64,000 nucleotides of DNA, from IMG/VR virus record IMGVR_UViG_3300044511_000202, positions 1 to 64,000 of that record. One strand, 5' to 3'. Below are positions 42,344 through 59,702 of the stretch, in pieces. This stretch comes from a virus. The translations under genes were made by a program, and so were the position numbers. How positions within the stretch are numbered: position 1 is the first letter of the stretch; each line of letters begins with the position of its first letter. The notes under the pieces are model-generated. The model searched no databases. It was not told the origin of the DNA and saw only the letters and a program-made list of their open reading frames with translations.

Positions 42344-44998
42344 CTAGGCCGCTTTCTTCTTCGGCGGAGGCTCCCACGGGACGAGCCGGTCATCGGGGCC
42401 CTTCCGCTTGGCGCCACCGTCGCGCCAGCGCGGGCTCGCCCCCTTGTACCAGCGGCGCATGAGCGCGGGCTCGGCGCGGCAAGCCTTCGCCAGGTCCGGG
42501 CAGTGGCGGCGAAGCTCCTCCTCCATGACGGCGGAGATGCGGTGCGCGGCCTCGTGCGCGAGGCACTCGTCCATCTCGACGATCAGCTCGTCGTGGGTGA
42601 ACACGATCACGCGCGCGTTCGCCAGGTACAGCGGCGACATCGCGCCGTCCGGCATGCGAAACGTAGCGTCGTAGCACTCGCGGGTCACGCGGCGGAGGGC
42701 GGCCTTCGCGGCGTCCGCGAGGAGCCCCTGGAACCACCCGTTGGCGATCGAGTTGCCCTGGGCTCCACCGCGGATGCGGTTCGACACGTGCTGGACGATC
42801 GAGCCCGGCTCCAGCTCCTCCAGGCCGAAGAGCGCCCTCTGCTCCTCGGTGAGCGGCTGCCCCTCCTCCTCGCAGTGCTTCACAAAATCGAAGTAGATTT
42901 TATTCTCCGGCCACTGCTCGAACCACTTCGCGCGGAGCCGCTCGGCGCATTCCACGCACCGCTTGCAGAGCGGCGCGGTGGCGCGCCCCTTCCACTCCGT
43001 GACCTTCTCGTCACCACACCTCGGCGCGCCGTCCATGAGGATGCAGAACCGTAGCCCCTTGTACCCCGGCCCCACGTAGTCCTCGGTCTCGATCGTGGTG
43101 GGGCCGTTCGGGCAAGGCGTGTCCGGCCCTTGCTTGCGCTGTTGGAGCACCAGCTTGGCGGCGCCCATGCGCCCGGGGAACCCGAAATTGGGCGGTTTGC
43201 TCGCCTGGCGCGCGTCGGCGCACACCTGGTAGCCCGGCGCGCCCTTGTCCGAGAATCGCTCCTGGAACTCCTCGTACGAGATGCCGAGCACCGTCGCGGC
43301 GAGCGCGTTGTGCACCTTCAAACCGGCGTTGAGGGCGTCAGCGAGCTTGGAGAACCCGCAGATCCAGATGCAGCTCTGCGCGTGCGTGACCAGCTCGCCC
43401 GCCTCGTAGTCCACGGTGGCGAACACGCGGCCGGGGCGCGCGACGATGCACTCGCGGATCCCGCCCTTGCGCGGCAGGAGCTGGACGCACCCGCCGTAGC
43501 TCGTGCGCCCCGTCTCCAGGAGCACGTTCGGCTTCAGGGTGAGCGGGATCGGCGCGTGGGTGTACGGGTCCCGGCCCTCACGGAGCCATGGGATGTATGT
43601 GCCGGGGAGTTTCTCCTCCTCCAGCCAGTCAGCCAGATCGATGAGTACCTCGTCGCCCGACTCCTGCAAGGCGTCGCGGCCCGTCCCCACTCCCTGAATG
43701 ATCCCCTCGCCCTCGCACTCGTCGCACTCAGTCATGTCCGGGAGCGAGCCGGTTCCCGAGCACGGCTTGCACTTCCCGCCGTCGGTGCGCGGAACCGGCG
43801 CGGACTCGAGCACCAGGCCCGTCGCGTCGCACGGCTTGCAGTTGATGAATTTGTTCGGGCGGGAGCCCTTGCCCTTGCAGCCGACGCACTCGAGCCCGGC
43901 GATCAGGCCCGAGCCCTTGCATGGGCGACACCGGACGATCTGCGCCTTCGGGCTCGGTACCTTCTGGGCGCCGTCGCAGTGCGGGCACGCCCCGTGGCAC
44001 CCGTAGGCCCGAGCGATGCGCCCTTTGATCGTCGCCATGTCGCGCGACGTCTTGATCTGCCCCTTCTCCTTCTTCAGCTTGAGCACGCCTGGCGCGAAGA
44101 GCGGTTTAGCCATCTCAGCCCGATCGGCGACCACGCGAGACTCGAGCGCGTCCACGGCGACCTGGTCGACGACGAAGCCCCAAGCTGCGCCCAGGTGCAT
44201 GGCGAAGTGCGAGTAGCACTGGTTCGCCAGGTCGTGGAGGTTGCGGCGGCGATCGCGGCGCGACACGCACGGGGCGCTGGCCTCGTACACCGAGCGCCCG
44301 CAGTGACGACACTGGGCGTCGGCGTTGTGTACGTCCACGAAGACGTGGGAGCCCGGGTGGGGGAGGTGACCGGTCTGGGCGAGGCACACCTCCAGCGTGT
44401 TGCACGCGTCATCTAGCGGGTACTGTCGCGCCAGCTCCGGCCACTCCTCGATGGGAAGCGGCTGGAGCAGCGCGTAGCTCTCGCGGTACACGTCGTTCAC
44501 CTTCGCGTTGACTCGGCCCAGCACCAGGTCCGTCACCACGGCCAGGTTATAGCGGACGGGCGTCTCGCCCGTGAGCGGATCGCGGAGCTGGCGCGCCGCG
44601 GGCGGCGGTCCGGTGCGCGGGTCCTTCCCGAGGTAGCCCGTCCCTACGGCGTGTAGCGCCTCGGCGATCTGCAAGTCGTACACGCGCTCGTCCTCGTACG
44701 CCTGGAAGATGAGCGGCATCAGGTCCACGCCGTCGGCGGCGGCGCGCACCGCGAGCACGAGCATATCGTAAGCGATGTTCGCGCCGATGATGACGAGCGA
44801 GCGATCGCCGAGGATCTTCTGTGCCGTCATCACGGTGGCGCGCTCGTCGAGGATTGCGGCCTTCACCACCCCGTCCGCGAGGCGCGCGATGGAGCCGCAC
44901 ACCAGCGGCGGCGCCAATAGACCCGGCTGGACGCGGTGCGTCTCGGTGTCGAACGCGCGACCGCGGTCGGCCAGCGAGCGGAGTCGCTCCTCGCGCAC
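42344..44998 (-). CDS. DNA polymerase, family A, with zinc-finger insertions
   Basis: 884 residues, GTG start right behind the upstream TAG. The 3'-5' exonuclease motifs are intact: AFDTET (D17, E19), GANIAYDML (N74, D78), YPLDDACNT (D196/197). Polymerase motifs: A VDYEAGEL (D530), B DARQASKPPNFGFPG (R597, K601, F605), C FTHDELIVEM (H802 D803 E804). Between them, residues ~334-432 hold six CxxCxGxG-type elements (CPHCDGA, CRPCKGSG, CVGCKGKG, CKPCDATG, CKPCSGTG, CDECEGEG) as in the DnaJ zinc domain. A second Cys-rich insertion follows motif B (C629, C652, C661, C678, C681, C684). No 5'-3' exonuclease domain. The replicative polymerase of the phage. Confidence 0.93.
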   Translation of the reverse strand: MREERLRSLADRGRAFDTETHRVQPGLLAPPLVCGSIARLADGVVKAAILDERATVMTAQKILGDRSLVIIGANIAYDMLVLAVRAAADGVDLMPLIFQAYEDERVYDLQIAEALHAVGTGYLGKDPRTGPPPAARQLRDPLTGETPVRYNLAVVTDLVLGRVNAKVNDVYRESYALLQPLPIEEWPELARQYPLDDACNTLEVCLAQTGHLPHPGSHVFVDVHNADAQCRHCGRSVYEASAPCVSRRDRRRNLHDLANQCYSHFAMHLGAAWGFVVDQVAVDALESRVVADRAEMAKPLFAPGVLKLKKEKGQIKTSRDMATIKGRIARAYGCHGACPHCDGAQKVPSPKAQIVRCRPCKGSGLIAGLECVGCKGKGSRPNKFINCKPCDATGLVLESAPVPRTDGGKCKPCSGTGSLPDMTECDECEGEGIIQGVGTGRDALQESGDEVLIDLADWLEEEKLPGTYIPWLREGRDPYTHAPIPLTLKPNVLLETGRTSYGGCVQLLPRKGGIRECIVARPGRVFATVDYEAGELVTHAQSCIWICGFSKLADALNAGLKVHNALAATVLGISYEEFQERFSDKGAPGYQVCADARQASKPPNFGFPGRMGAAKLVLQQRKQGPDTPCPNGPTTIETEDYVGPGYKGLRFCILMDGAPRCGDEKVTEWKGRATAPLCKRCVECAERLRAKWFEQWPENKIYFDFVKHCEEEGQPLTEEQRALFGLEELEPGSIVQHVSNRIRGGAQGNSIANGWFQGLLADAAKAALRRVTRECYDATFRMPDGAMSPLYLANARVIVFTHDELIVEMDECLAHEAAHRISAVMEEELRRHCPDLAKACRAEPALMRRWYKGASPRWRDGGAKRKGPDDRLVPWEPPPKKKAA

Positions 44999-47029: not shown

Positions 47030-49297
47030 TTATTCCGCCTCCCAGTCACCGTCGGGATCGGCGTCGTCGAACGCGTCCACGAAGTCGGCGATCGGGGCGG
47101 CCGAAGCGGCCTCCGGCCGCACGAACCCGCGGAGCAGCTTCTGGCTGCTCCCGATCGTGGTCTGCACGTACAGCGCCCGCGCGAGCGCGCGGTCCACGTG
47201 GTCCCGCAGCTCCGGGGTGTGGCGGTAGAAGCGCGCCCACACGCGCGGGCTGGTCTGGCCGATGCGGTGCAGGCGGCCCAGCAGCTGCTCCCAGTTGGTG
47301 GGGGATGCCGGGGGCTGGGCGACGAGTTGATCGTCGAAGAGCCGCTGTAGCCCGTCGCGCCCGGTGCCGTGGGCCTTGATGGAGCAGATGATCGACCGCT
47401 CACCCGTTTCCCGGGCGAGCAGCGCGGCGGCGTCCGGCCCGCCGGTGTGCTGGGCGAGGCCCGACAGCTGAGCGATCCACTTCCCGAACTCGGCGGACTC
47501 GTACCAGACGATCCCGCGGTTCTCGCGCGCCCAGTCGGCGGCGTCCTGGGCGAGGTACGGGTCCAGCCGCGAGGCGCGCGTCTCGTACACCACGCGCCCC
47601 TTGATGTCGCGCCACGCTGGCCAGAAGAGCGAGTCCCACTCCGGGTGCCTCGCCTCCCACTCCTCCTTGGAGCACGGGGCGCGCTTGCCGGTGCCGTGGC
47701 ACGCCTTGCAGCGGTGCTGGCACGACTCGATCTCGATACCCGTCCCGGCGCACGCCTCGCACGGGCGCTCACCCGGCCACTCCGGGACCTTGATGTCACC
47801 GTGGTGGCGCATCGCGGCCAGCTCCACGAGGTGCGGCGAGTCGAGGTGGTCGAGCCGGCGGAAGAGCTTGGATCGCACCTCGGAGCGGTAGTCCTTGCGG
47901 ATCTCCAGCCACTCCATGATGAGCCCGGCGTCCTGGGGTTGCCCGTTCACCTCGGGGTAGAACCAGTAATAGTGGAACCCGCAGGCCAGCTCGCGGGCGG
48001 TGCGCGCGACGCTCATCGCGTCCAGGAGCACCTCGCCGTCCGGGCGGCGCCACGTCTCGCGGAGGACGCGAAGATGCTCCTCGATCTCCCGGGGCACCTC
48101 GCTCCTGGGACGCTGCTCCTCGATGCACAGCTCGGCGCTCACCGCGGCGTCGGTCGTCGACACCACCCCCAGCGTCTGCACCAGGCGGCGGTGGAACCCT
48201 TCGCTCACGTGCTCGCCCTCCTCGCACAGCTGCTCGAGGGCTCCCATGGGCGCCGCGGAGTGCCACGGGGCGTAGGGGTCCTTCTCCTTCACCTCGTCGG
48301 GAACCTTCTTCGGATCGAGCGCGCGGCACCAGTCCTCCGTCACCTCGCGCTCCGTCGGGAGCGGGCTGCCCTGTCGCAACGCGGCAAACATGAGGTGGTC
48401 GTAGTCCTTGAGGCTCCCGTCCGTCGGGCTCCCGGACCACCAGCAGAACCGCGTGCGGTCCGGCTGATCGGACAGGCGACGGAACACGCGCGACGTCGTC
48501 GCGGTGTCGGCGTGGCGGAGGCGGTGGCCCTCGTCTGCCACGATGAGCGTGGGATCGATCTGGGTGAGGCGCGTCGACGAGTCGGGGCGCGACAAGCGCG
48601 AGTAGGGGTACACGTGGAGCCACACGCGGGTGGCGCGAGCGCCCTCGTGCTCCACCATGAAGTCGCGCGGCGCCGGGTCGCGCGGGAGCTTCACCTTCCC
48701 GTGCACGATGATGTTGGGTGTCTTGAAGTGCTGGGACACCAGCTCCCACTCGCGGATGAGCTGGTTCACGAGCGTGGGTGGCACGAGCAGCGCCACGTTC
48801 TCGCACCCGGGGAGCGCCATCCCGGCGAGGATGTCCAGGATCGTTTTCCCGTGCCCCACGCCGATGAGCCCGGAGAGTCCCATGGCCAGCGGGATCTCGT
48901 ACAGGCCCCACGCCTGGGCGAGGTTCAGCGCTGTGATGCACGCGCGCGGACGCTCCATGTGGCGCTCCAGGATCTCGGCGCACGAGCACGGCTTCCCGGT
49001 CGGGTCCACCCACGCGTGGCGTCGCGTCACCACGCGGATGAGCGCGGCCTCCTCCTTCGAGCCCGGTACGACGACGGGTCGGCGCGCGAGCCCCAGCACG
49101 CGCTGTAGCTCCTCGCTGTCACCCACGGCCAGCCTCGTGCTCTTGCCCGTCTCCGGCGCGCCGGACTGCCACGCCTGCGGTCTGAAGCCCTTCCGGGCAG
49201 TCAGCTCGTCCAGCGCCACGGTGGCGGTCACCTCGCGGCCGTCCGGCATCTCCACGAAGATGTCGTCCAGCCCCAGCTTGTCGTCCTCGTCGCTCAT
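47030..49297 (-). CDS. SF2/SNF2-like DNA helicase with DnaJ-type zinc insertion
   Basis: 755 residues; the ATG at 49297 overlaps the stop of the lipoprotein gene (ATGA). Walker A LIGVGHGKT (~144-152), LLVPPTLVNQLI (Ia), LIVADEGHRL (DEGH 255-258), WWSGSPTDGS (III) and LLGRLHRIGQ (VI, ~672-681) define an SF2 enzyme of the SNF2/DEAD kind. Residues 513-542 hold a zinc module: CEACAGTG, C526, CKACHGTG, C542, again like DnaJ. Probably a replicative or origin helicase. Confidence 0.9.
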   Translation of the reverse strand: MSDEDDKLGLDDIFVEMPDGREVTATVALDELTARKGFRPQAWQSGAPETGKSTRLAVGDSEELQRVLGLARRPVVVPGSKEEAALIRVVTRRHAWVDPTGKPCSCAEILERHMERPRACITALNLAQAWGLYEIPLAMGLSGLIGVGHGKTILDILAGMALPGCENVALLVPPTLVNQLIREWELVSQHFKTPNIIVHGKVKLPRDPAPRDFMVEHEGARATRVWLHVYPYSRLSRPDSSTRLTQIDPTLIVADEGHRLRHADTATTSRVFRRLSDQPDRTRFCWWSGSPTDGSLKDYDHLMFAALRQGSPLPTEREVTEDWCRALDPKKVPDEVKEKDPYAPWHSAAPMGALEQLCEEGEHVSEGFHRRLVQTLGVVSTTDAAVSAELCIEEQRPRSEVPREIEEHLRVLRETWRRPDGEVLLDAMSVARTARELACGFHYYWFYPEVNGQPQDAGLIMEWLEIRKDYRSEVRSKLFRRLDHLDSPHLVELAAMRHHGDIKVPEWPGERPCEACAGTGIEIESCQHRCKACHGTGKRAPCSKEEWEARHPEWDSLFWPAWRDIKGRVVYETRASRLDPYLAQDAADWARENRGIVWYESAEFGKWIAQLSGLAQHTGGPDAAALLARETGERSIICSIKAHGTGRDGLQRLFDDQLVAQPPASPTNWEQLLGRLHRIGQTSPRVWARFYRHTPELRDHVDRALARALYVQTTIGSSQKLLRGFVRPEAASAAPIADFVDAFDDADPDGDWEAE

Positions 49298-56754: not shown

Positions 56755-58986
56755 TCACGCGCTCGGTTGTTCCACCCCGCCGTGGCGGCTCTTGGAGAGC
56801 GCCCGACCGGCGTCGGTGAGCGCGTACTTCCCGCGAGCGCGCTCCTGCACGAACCACCCGCGGCTGGTGGCGAGCTTCAGCGCCAGGTGCTTCGTCTCGG
56901 TGCGCCCCTTGACGGTTGACTTGATCTGCTCCGACGTCACGAGCGGCTTCCGCGCCACCTCGGCGCGGTAGCACGCGTCCACCATCTGCATGGCCAGCTC
57001 CTCCCACGTCTCCACCTGATCGTCGGTGGCGGCGCCCGCGCCCTTCTCGGCGATCTCCCACCGGGCCTCGCGCGCCACGCCGCTCTCGGCGTCGTCCACG
57101 AGCTTGAGGGTCACGTCGAACACCCCGGCGGAGCGCGCGGCCTTCACCTCGCTCTCCAGGGTAGAGGTGATGCTGCACGCGTCCCCGCGGCGCTCGCGGA
57201 GGTAGATGCCCGAGTCCACGAACCCGTGGATCGCGCCGGAGCCGCGCATGGTCTGGCCGGGACGCTGGTTCCGGGTCGCCTCGCTGGCCTTCTTCGCGTG
57301 GTGTACGAGCAGCACCGTGCACCCGAGCAGCACCGAGATCAGCCGCACGTGCTTGAACACGACGGCCATGCTGTCGCTCGAGTCCTCCTCGCCCTCGTGC
57401 ACGTTGCGGAGTGGATCGAGCACCATCAACTTGCACCCGCCGGCCACGCGCGCGCTCGCCACGAGCCGCGCGACGTCGTCGGGCTTGGACAGGTCGATCG
57501 AGCGCCCGCGCGGCTGGCAGTACAGCGTCGAGGCGACGGCCCGGGGGCTCATGCCGCGCCCCGCGCACAGCGCCAGCAGGTGGCTCCGCACGGCCTCGCG
57601 CATGTCCTCGGTGTAGAAGTACATCACGCGCCCCGGCTTCGCGGCGTACTTCCCGAACACGGGGGTACCGCTCGCCACGGCCACGGCGATCTCGGTGGCG
57701 ATCCACGTTTTGCCGATCTTCGGCTCGGCGCCGATCAGCCCGATGCCGCCGTCCAGGACCAGGTTCCGCACGAGCCACTCCGGCCGCTCGTCGGGCATGG
57801 CGAACAGCTCCCCGGCGGACATGAAGAACGGGCGTTCCGCGGCGTCCCCGCCCTCCGCGGACCGGCCGAGCGCGGCGGCCACGTCGTCGACGGCGCGCCG
57901 CAGCTCCTCCAGGTACCTCGCTACGGGGCTCCCCGGCGGGAGGCTCACGCCCGGGTCGGCGTCGAGGATGTCGAGGGCCTCCTGGACGGCGGGCACCGCG
58001 ACAGGGTCACCCCCGCTGCGGGGCGGGAGGGCATCCGGGGGCGCCACGGCCGACGCAACGCCGATGCCGGCCCGGGCCAGGCGCGCGGCCACCGACGCGC
58101 TCGGGCGCGCCCACCCGCGGTGGCCGAAGGTCCCGTCCTCATCAGTACCGTCGGCGGCCACCGACAGCACGCGGCGCTCCAGCTCAGCCTGACCGTGTGG
58201 CTTGCCGCTCTGCTCCGACCACCAGGCGAGCTGGGCCCACCCGTCGTCGAGGGACAGCCCCCAGTCGTGGAACACGGTGCGGATCGCCCGGAAGGTGGTG
58301 GCGTTCCCGCCGCAGCGCGGTCCGAGCGCGGCGAGCTTCTCCCGCAGCGCCAGCACCTCGGCGCTGGAGAGCGGCCCGTCGACGGTGCGCTCCCACGCCT
58401 CGATCCCGAGATCCCCGGACTTGTCGTCGAGCCGCGGGTGATAGAGGGCGTCGAGCCACGCCTCGGGTACCTCGGGCGCCATCGCGATCGACAGCGCCGT
58501 GGGGCGCTCGCAGAGCCAGCGATACTGGGCCCCCGTCTTGTGGTGCACGCTCGGCTCCACCACCAGGTAGCCGTTGCACTTGACGTCCACGCCTCGCCCG
58601 AGCCCCAGGTGATCGAGGCGCCCCCGGGGGCGTCGCCCGGCGAGGATTTGATTCGGCGGCTCCCGCAAGATCAAATGCAGGCCACCTCCGCCCGAGCGCG
58701 CGCACAGCTCGCGCGGGAGCGGCCCGAGCTTGCGCTCGCACGCCGCGAAGGTCACCTCCCCGCCGTTGCGCGGGTCCACGTCCAGCGCGATCAGGCCGTT
58801 CGGGCGCATCGGCATCCCGACGTTGAACGTCGGGTCCGCACCCCACCAGGCGCGGATCGCCTCGGGGTCCGAGGAGGCCCCGTGGTACCCACCCTCGACG
58901 GCGGGGCGGCTCGACGCGCGCGCCATGGGGAAGACCACGATCCCTTCGGAGGCGAGGCGGAGGGCCTCGTCGCGGAGGGCGCTCAC
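56755..58986 (-). CDS. Primase-polymerase/RecA-like helicase fusion
   Basis: 743 residues, GTG overlapping the methyltransferase stop. N-terminal PrimPol domain (~1-180): LIALDVDPRNGG (D69, D71), SGGGGLHL (H104), GVDVKCNGYLVV. Linker and helical part ~190-390. C-terminal RecA/RepA-like ATPase: LIGAEPKIGKTW (Walker A ~419-427), KLMVLDPLRNV (Walker B), LLVHHAKK. A final winged helix (TSEQIKSTVKGRTETKHLA). It would start replication and unwind DNA. The combination is typical of phage and plasmid replication proteins. Confidence 0.92.
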   Translation of the reverse strand: MSALRDEALRLASEGIVVFPMARASSRPAVEGGYHGASSDPEAIRAWWGADPTFNVGMPMRPNGLIALDVDPRNGGEVTFAACERKLGPLPRELCARSGGGGLHLILREPPNQILAGRRPRGRLDHLGLGRGVDVKCNGYLVVEPSVHHKTGAQYRWLCERPTALSIAMAPEVPEAWLDALYHPRLDDKSGDLGIEAWERTVDGPLSSAEVLALREKLAALGPRCGGNATTFRAIRTVFHDWGLSLDDGWAQLAWWSEQSGKPHGQAELERRVLSVAADGTDEDGTFGHRGWARPSASVAARLARAGIGVASAVAPPDALPPRSGGDPVAVPAVQEALDILDADPGVSLPPGSPVARYLEELRRAVDDVAAALGRSAEGGDAAERPFFMSAGELFAMPDERPEWLVRNLVLDGGIGLIGAEPKIGKTWIATEIAVAVASGTPVFGKYAAKPGRVMYFYTEDMREAVRSHLLALCAGRGMSPRAVASTLYCQPRGRSIDLSKPDDVARLVASARVAGGCKLMVLDPLRNVHEGEEDSSDSMAVVFKHVRLISVLLGCTVLLVHHAKKASEATRNQRPGQTMRGSGAIHGFVDSGIYLRERRGDACSITSTLESEVKAARSAGVFDVTLKLVDDAESGVAREARWEIAEKGAGAATDDQVETWEELAMQMVDACYRAEVARKPLVTSEQIKSTVKGRTETKHLALKLATSRGWFVQERARGKYALTDAGRALSKSRHGGVEQPSA

Positions 58987-59702
58987 GCGCCCTCCAGCGC
59001 GTACCTGAGCCCGGGCGTGCGATACGGACCCAGGTAGTACAGGCGCTCCCTCGCGCGCCCCGACGTGCCCCCAGAGAGAGTCTTGACCGGCGTACCCTCC
59101 CATACCACCTCCCCCAGCGGGAAGTCGTACTCCGACACGAAGACGTCGGTGTGTCGAGCCCACTCGGCGACGCGTCTGCGAAAGAGTTCGTTATCGAACG
59201 CACCGGTTGCACCGTAAGCGGTGGTACCAGCGTAAGGGGGGTCGAGATAGAGTACCGTCGCTGTGGGATACGGTTCGACATCGAGGAAGTTGAGAAGTTG
59301 CACGGTGCGCTGTCGGGCGTCTCGCAGGAGGGCGCGACGGGCGGCGCCCGCGTAGTCCTGGTTAGACGCGCTACGCGCGTAACCTCCGAACCACTTGCCG
59401 CCGAACGAGCATCCAAAGCCCGCGAACGCTTTGAGAGGGTTATCGTCAGGAAGATGGCGCGCGGCGCGGTACTGCTCCTCGGACAGCGAGGGGGGCGGAT
59501 CCCACCCGTTACGCACTGCTTGATAGAGCGCTACGAGGGGTGCGCACGCGTCGCTCGCGAGCACGGGTCCGTCTGTAGACAGCGCCACGCTCATGCTCAA
59601 CCCCCCGCAGAACGCGTCCCACACGGGGCGCTCACCTGCGTGCGAGCGAATACACGCGGCGAGTTGCTTCGCGATTCGACTCTTTCCACCTAAGTACTGC
59701 AT
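58983..59702 (-). CDS. DNA adenine methyltransferase, D12 class
   Basis: 239 residues, ATG overlapping the upstream stop (TGATG). MQYLGGKSRIAKQLA (AdoMet site of Dam-type enzymes), WDAFCGGLSMSVAL, and VLYLDPPYAGTTAYG (DPPY 154-157), then a C-terminal FVSEYDFPLGEVVWEG. Alpha-class order, as in Dam. Target sequence not predictable. Together with the enzyme at 40098 it gives the phage two adenine methyltransferases. Confidence 0.9.
   Translation of the reverse strand: MQYLGGKSRIAKQLAACIRSHAGERPVWDAFCGGLSMSVALSTDGPVLASDACAPLVALYQAVRNGWDPPPSLSEEQYRAARHLPDDNPLKAFAGFGCSFGGKWFGGYARSASNQDYAGAARRALLRDARQRTVQLLNFLDVEPYPTATVLYLDPPYAGTTAYGATGAFDNELFRRRVAEWARHTDVFVSEYDFPLGEVVWEGTPVKTLSGGTSGRARERLYYLGPYRTPGLRYALEGA

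What the first reader, a model, noticed from the sequence alone, without database searches (positions are those of the whole stretch)
42344..44998. DNA polymerase A with a DnaJ-type zinc domain between exonuclease and polymerase
Six CxxCxGxG-type elements at residues ~334-432 sit exactly between intact exonuclease and polymerase motifs, and another Cys-rich insertion follows motif B. DnaJ zinc domains bind unfolded protein or mediate contacts. In a polymerase they could hold a processivity partner or the helicase, which carries the same kind of module.
Basis: partly seen in the sequence, partly recalled or inferred. Interest (0 to 1): 0.85.

Follow-up and report, generated by a model that had tools for sequence, protein, structure and literature searches.

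The report
Phage DNA polymerase with zinc-knuckle thumb
An uncultivated contractile-tailed phage encodes a family A DNA polymerase whose DNA-gripping "thumb" carries a cysteine-rich (probably zinc-binding) insert resembling part of the chaperone DnaJ; the basic layout was already known from abundant marine phages, but here it sits in a separate polymerase lineage and is enlarged from two to six cysteine elements.

Summary
The 884-aa PolA (42344-44998, -) has intact exonuclease and polymerase motifs and six CxxC elements at residues 338-428 (0 of 20,000 shuffles reach six). The insert is inside the polymerase thumb, at the tip loop equivalent to Klenow residue ~599, next to but not at T7's thioredoxin-binding site. 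Relatives show the ancestral unit is ONE Cys4 knuckle (two elements), present in 22 of 31 homologues. The window has a DnaJ-like nested inner pair plus a unique third pair. A second Cys4 insert in the fingers is more conserved.

The layout is not new in kind: HMO-2011-type marine phages are defined by a PolA with two CXXCXGXG motifs between exonuclease and polymerase (PMC9038755, PMC6918029). CRP-1 and CRP-3 have theirs in the same thumb loop, yet their polymerases group with knuckle-less PolAs, so the two lineages probably acquired it independently or by exchange.

The helicase link is weak: its module is absent from nearly all relatives' SNF2 proteins (found only in the window and L113). Most likely function: a metal-stabilised thumb-tip extension that grips duplex DNA or docks a partner, like T7's thumb insert. 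This is inferred, not shown.

The parts
42344..44998 (-). Family A DNA polymerase gene, 884 aa, GTG start
44369..44965 (-). 3'-5' exonuclease domain, about residues 12-210, motifs FDTET / GANIAYD / YPLDD
   Evidence: weak Pfam DNA_pol_A_exo1; model
43691..44002 (-). Thumb-tip cysteine module, residues 333-436, with all six CxxC elements
43829..43987 (-). Span of the ancestral outer pair, C338/C341 and C387/C390 (one predicted Cys4 metal site)
   Evidence: alignment A4: C387 and C390 invariant, C338 and C341 at least 90%; pLDDT about 91-93
43877..43930 (-). Nested inner pair, C357/C360 and C371/C374, giving a DnaJ-like 1-4 / 2-3 order
   Evidence: counterparts in L100, L104, L008; pLDDT about 60
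43715..43771 (-). Third pair, C410/C413 and C425/C428, in this alignment only in the window's protein
   Evidence: pLDDT 45-50, placement uncertain
43163..43210 (-). Polymerase motif B, residues 597-612, RQASKPPNFGFPGRMG
42941..43117 (-). Fingers Cys4 insert after motif B, residues 628-686 (C652, C661, C678, C681)
   Evidence: the four Cys at least 90% conserved in A2; absent from L129 and L017
42587..42595 (-). Polymerase motif C, HDE 802-804
47030..49297 (-). SNF2-type helicase/translocase, 755 aa, linked to this PolA in 27 related loci
47687..47761 (-). Two CxxCxGxG elements in the SNF2 protein (residues 513-537), in a length-variable loop
49895..51955 (-). PD-(D/E)XK nuclease-like protein, part of the shared replication block (start approximate)
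56755..59163 (-). Prim-Pol plus AAA (RepA/DnaB-like) primase-helicase

Best explanation
This is the replicative family A DNA polymerase of a contractile-tailed phage. SHOWN by sequence: the thumb tip of the polymerase, just before the segment matching Klenow LKKTPGGAPSTSEEVL, carries a cysteine knuckle of the CxxCxGxG kind. The ancestral form in its lineage is a single Cys4 unit, enlarged in this phage by a nested inner pair and a third pair. A second Cys4 insert lies in the fingers. INFERRED: the Cys4 units bind zinc (or iron) and act as small rigid struts; the thumb unit lengthens the thumb tip so that it holds the primer-template duplex more firmly and/or offers a docking face for a phage replication partner. 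It would therefore work like the T7 thumb insert, by raising processivity, without being a thioredoxin-binding domain. The partner, if any, is not known.
For: PolA fold: model pLDDT 89.5, pTM 0.88; Taq/Bst/Klenow matches, best Z 26.8. Insert site: profile-to-Klenow alignment resumes at chain position 275-276 with LKKTPGG, Klenow residue 599 in my numbering; module-free relatives have a plain loop, e.g. AYDGLPPTTDGGDISMSRE, at the same place. Conserved outer Cys. The same kind of unit at the same thumb loop in HMO-2011-type CRP-1 and CRP-3, whose polymerases group with knuckle-less PolAs (AU test against one clade p 0.0076). T7's thioredoxin-binding insert lies just before the neighbouring helix (FNPSS at residue 334). 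Thumb truncation of E. coli Pol I reduces processivity and fidelity (Minnick 1996) and T7's insert gives E. coli Pol I processivity (Bedford 1997), both as cited in PMC10061031.
Against: No metal, DNA-binding or processivity data. The inner and third pairs are low confidence in the model (about 60 and 45-50 pLDDT). Seven members (L011-L013, L121, L123, L125, L126) lack the knuckle, so it is not essential to this polymerase type. Size differs widely between close relatives, which could mean weakly constrained drift of a loop. No partner gene co-varying with the knuckle was seen in the flanks (flanks limited).
Confidence: 0.5

Rival explanations
1. The cysteine module is a purely structural, tolerated loop insertion. 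One metal knuckle caps a surface loop and extra pairs accumulate by drift without a specific function.
For: Module length varies from 45 to 104 residues among knuckled relatives and the knuckle is lost in one clade; the helicase loop that gained elements is also length-variable; the inner and third pairs are poorly modelled.
Against: The outer Cys are invariant or nearly so across divergent members; enlargement mostly adds CxxC pairs rather than random sequence; a second polymerase lineage has the same kind of unit in the same loop.
Confidence: 0.25
2. The modules in PolA and the SNF2 protein are a matched pair that brings the two together.
For: SNF2 and PolA genes are neighbours in 27 related loci. 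In the window and in L113 the SNF2 protein and PolA are the only proteins seen with several such elements, and both have enlarged PolA modules. The two are not sister lineages.
Against: Relatives with knuckled PolA mostly have no module in the SNF2 protein; enlarged PolAs of L104, L008 and L100 go with module-free SNF2 proteins. Two cases only.
Confidence: 0.12
3. A chaperone-like, unfolded-protein-binding module in the sense of DnaJ.
For: The fragment passes the Pfam DnaJ central-domain cut-off; weak structural matches are to BSD2, DnaJ and DnaJA2.
Against: No J domain or other DnaJ domain found in the protein; similar units occur in UvrA and Anti-TRAP, so the motif does not imply chaperone function; Foldseek E-values are 0.18 or worse.
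Confidence: 0.05

Closest known systems
HMO-2011-type phage DNA polymerase (Puniceispirillum phage HMO-2011, roseophages CRP-1, CRP-3; PMC9038755, PMC6918029)
   Same: Family A polymerase with a partial DnaJ central domain between exonuclease and polymerase motifs; the knuckle sits in the same thumb loop.
   Different: Two elements in 74 of 80 scanned relatives, not six; no fingers Cys4 insert in CRP-1; DnaB-like helicase, separate primase and RNR in the phage; the polymerase groups with AB3/SeaP3/BM15, not with the window clade.
Myoviridae sp. ctsHD2 PolA (MW202816, Manatee Spring)
   Same: The only named phage relative found; same set of PolA, SNF2 protein, PD-(D/E)XK nuclease and Prim-Pol helicase; knuckle at the same site; fingers insert present.
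   Different: Only two CxxCxGxG elements in PolA and none in the SNF2 protein.
T7 DNA polymerase thioredoxin-binding domain
   Same: An insertion at the thumb tip of a phage family A polymerase.
   Different: T7's insert lies before the helix that starts FNPSS, the window's after it; no CxxC in T7 gp5; no evidence of thioredoxin binding here.
DnaJ central cysteine-rich domain (PF00684)
   Same: CxxCxGxG elements with similar spacing and nested order; fragment scores 38.9 bits against a cut-off of 32.7.
   Different: Six elements rather than four, two of them degenerate; no other DnaJ domain; structural similarity only weak.
Anti-TRAP (PF15777)
   Same: Single two-element CxxCxGxG zinc unit, as in most relatives; weak Pfam matches in 12 of 30 members.
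   Different: A free-standing small oligomeric regulator (PMC2896485), not a polymerase insert; best match E 3.1e-05 among members, none in the window's whole protein.

Membership tests
Family A DNA polymerase (PF00476) | Motifs A, B and C with catalytic Asp/Asp and the PolA fold | tested here: met
   DNA_pol_A 5.8e-11 above cut-off; D530, R597/K601, D803; Z 26.8 to Taq polymerase
Family A DNA polymerase (PF00476) | 3'-5' exonuclease motifs present (proofreading type) | tested here: met
   FDTET, GANIAYD, YPLDD conserved in the alignment
HMO-2011-type DNA polymerase | Partial DnaJ domain with two CXXCXGXG motifs between exonuclease and polymerase | tested here: inconclusive
   Module is at the same site but has six elements, four strict; two in most relatives
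HMO-2011-type DNA polymerase | Polymerase shares ancestry with the HMO-2011 group to the exclusion of other PolAs | tested here: not met
   Tree and AU test p 0.0076; hhalign 156 bits to the window clade against 241-253 to AB3/SeaP3/BM15. Long branches present.
HMO-2011-type DNA polymerase | Sequence similarity detectable by tblastn to HMO-2011-type genomes | tested here: not met
   P0001 finds only ctsHD2 among 50,697 phage records
DnaJ central domain (PF00684) | Four CxxCxGxG elements scoring above the Pfam cut-off | tested here: inconclusive
   23.2 bits in the whole protein, 38.9 in the fragment, cut-off 32.7
DnaJ central domain (PF00684) | Two Zn sites formed by elements 1+4 and 2+3 | not testable with these tools
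   Nested order fits but no metal or coordinate data; inner pair about 60 pLDDT
DnaJ central domain (PF00684) | Fold match to solved DnaJ cysteine-rich domains | tested here: inconclusive
   Best Foldseek E 0.18 (BSD2), 1exk E 1.0; VIA Z 2.0-2.4
T7-type thioredoxin-binding thumb insert | Insert on the N-terminal side of the FNPSS helix | tested here: not met
   Window insert is on the C-terminal side of that helix
T7-type thioredoxin-binding thumb insert | Binds thioredoxin and raises processivity | not testable with these tools
   Needs biochemistry

The most novel reading that the evidence does not exclude
Two separate phage polymerase lineages independently placed a DnaJ-type metal knuckle at the same thumb-tip loop, making a recurrent metal-built processivity or docking device of family A polymerases, which in this lineage grew to three metal sites and in two phages was also fitted to the linked SNF2 protein.
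Probability: 0.25. Interest if true: 0.62.

Novelty: new variant of a known kind. Interest (0 to 1): 0.4.

Why it matters
HMO-2011-type polymerases are abundant in the ocean, and the papers read here describe their DnaJ-like insert without testing a function. A second, separate lineage with natural versions carrying none, one and several cysteine pairs at the same thumb position gives a ready comparison set for asking what the insert does. SNF2-linked viral polymerases have been reported to strand-displace (PMC9069017), so a thumb element of this kind could also be of practical interest.

Tried and rejected
A single-sequence search of viral contigs found no relatives; the two-sequence alignment did. 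HMO-2011 membership was considered and not supported. A helicase-wide shared module was considered: not found in relatives except L113. A co-varying partner gene in the flanks: none seen. Recent tandem duplication as the source of the extra elements: only short imperfect DNA repeats (18 and 15 nt). Structure search with the module alone gave only weak matches. Coordinates of the models were not available, so Cys-Cys distances were not measured. The original HMO-2011 paper and the T7 insert paper were not held, so they are cited through later papers.

Full report
OBSERVATION. The ORF at 42344-44998 (-) encodes 884 aa. It has six CxxC elements at 338, 357, 371, 387, 410 and 425; four fit CxxCxGxG strictly. 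Shuffling the protein 20,000 times never gave six CxxC within 100 residues. Exonuclease and polymerase motifs are intact. The linked SNF2-type protein (47030-49297, -) has two CxxCxGxG elements; these two ORFs are the only ones in the window with two or more such elements.

WHERE THE INSERT SITS. A profile of 30 homologues aligns to Klenow with its match resuming at LKKTPGGAPSTSEEVL, chain position 275-276, residue 599 in my numbering. Homologues without the insert have a plain loop there. The insert is therefore at the thumb tip, within the polymerase domain. T7's thioredoxin-binding insert lies on the other side of the adjacent helix (its limits, about 258-334, are from memory). The AlphaFold2 model is confident overall (pLDDT 89.5, pTM 0.88) and for the outer pair (about 91-93), poor for the inner (about 60) and third pair (45-50). 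Modelling the fragment alone gave the same pattern.

RELATIVES. Only one named phage record matches, ctsHD2, 35% identical, with two elements. Searches of IMG/VR and genome contigs added about 30 loci. In 31 aligned polymerases, 22 carry at least one knuckle, and five (window, L113, L104, L008, L100) have clearly enlarged modules with 8 to 13 Cys. Knuckle-less members L011, L012, L013, L121, L123, L125 and L126 form one clade, and basal L129 and L017 also lack it. The extra inner pair of the window has counterparts in L100, L104 and L008; the third pair does not. The fingers Cys4 is at least 90% conserved among 14 members, including knuckle-less ones, and is absent from L129 and L017.

LITERATURE. 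HMO-2011-type phages are described as having an atypical polymerase with a partial DnaJ central domain and two CXXCXGXG motifs between exonuclease and polymerase; this is used as a criterion for the group, for which more than 2000 polymerase sequences were identified (PMC9038755; PMC6918029; PMC8528129). I read the CRP-1 and CRP-3 polymerases: the unit lies between the NLNSPEQL / NLNSGIDM helix and the TSKDKL / TDKVTV segment, the same thumb loop; 74 of 80 CRP-1 relatives scanned have two elements.

ARE THE TWO LINEAGES ONE? Profile comparison puts HMO-type closer to AB3, SeaP3 and BM15 (241-253 bits, none with CxxC) than to the window clade (156 bits). The tree separates them, and the presence of the knuckle needs at least three changes. 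Holding the HMO-type and window clades together was rejected (p 0.0076), with the caution that long branches are present. A profile of the window-clade knuckle finds HMO knuckles weakly (best E 3e-05, most near 1e-3), so exchange of the module by recombination is not excluded.

HELICASE. SNF2 neighbours PolA in 27 related loci. Modules in the SNF2 loop were found in the window and in L113 only. L104, L008 and L100, which have enlarged PolA modules, lack it; in L100 the two helicase matches abut, leaving no room for it. No SNF2 match was found in L003's record.

MECHANISM. Shown: position, conservation and Cys patterns. Inferred: metal binding, thumb stiffening or lengthening, duplex grip or partner docking. 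Precedents: thumb truncation of Pol I lowers processivity and fidelity, T7's thumb insert confers processivity on Pol I, and a Clostridium polymerase is predicted to bind SSB with its thumb tip (all via PMC10061031). Anti-TRAP shows that a two-element unit can be a zinc-dependent protein-contact module (PMC2896485).

VERDICT. A real, well-defined variant of a known arrangement; the mechanism is untested.

Noticed in passing
L008:9467-9717: The L008 PolA gene is interrupted: a stop after ...EEPEEASDAE and resumption about 250 bases later, with a Cys-rich reading in another frame. Possibly a frameshift or assembly error.
   Followed up: partly
window:43163-43210: Motif B in most of the clade reads NFGFPGGMG (window NFGFPGRMG), so by my alignment the Pol I Tyr766 position is Gly and Ile765 is Pro, while Phe762 is kept.
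   Followed up: no
window:54907-55797: Trypsin-like protease (Pfam Trypsin_2 5.4e-15) in the early region near the replication genes.
   Followed up: no
window:53620-54105: Protein matching a PHROG annotated cysteine dioxygenase (1.7e-33).
   Followed up: no
window:45419-45844: DUF7768 protein (Pfam 1.5e-21), also matching a nucleoside 2-deoxyribosyltransferase PHROG (2.3e-12), between PolA and SNF2.
   Followed up: no
window:18302-19942: Tail sheath protein (phrog_205, 5.8e-57): the phage has a contractile tail.
   Followed up: no
L113:827-3058: SNF2 protein with CxxC elements (CMSCDGSG, CQDC, CDECGGRG) in the same loop as in the window.
   Followed up: yes
L006:10792-11514: A separate ORF in L006 has CRECSGKG...CHECNGTG and matches the knuckle profile weakly (E 0.0014).
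   Followed up: no
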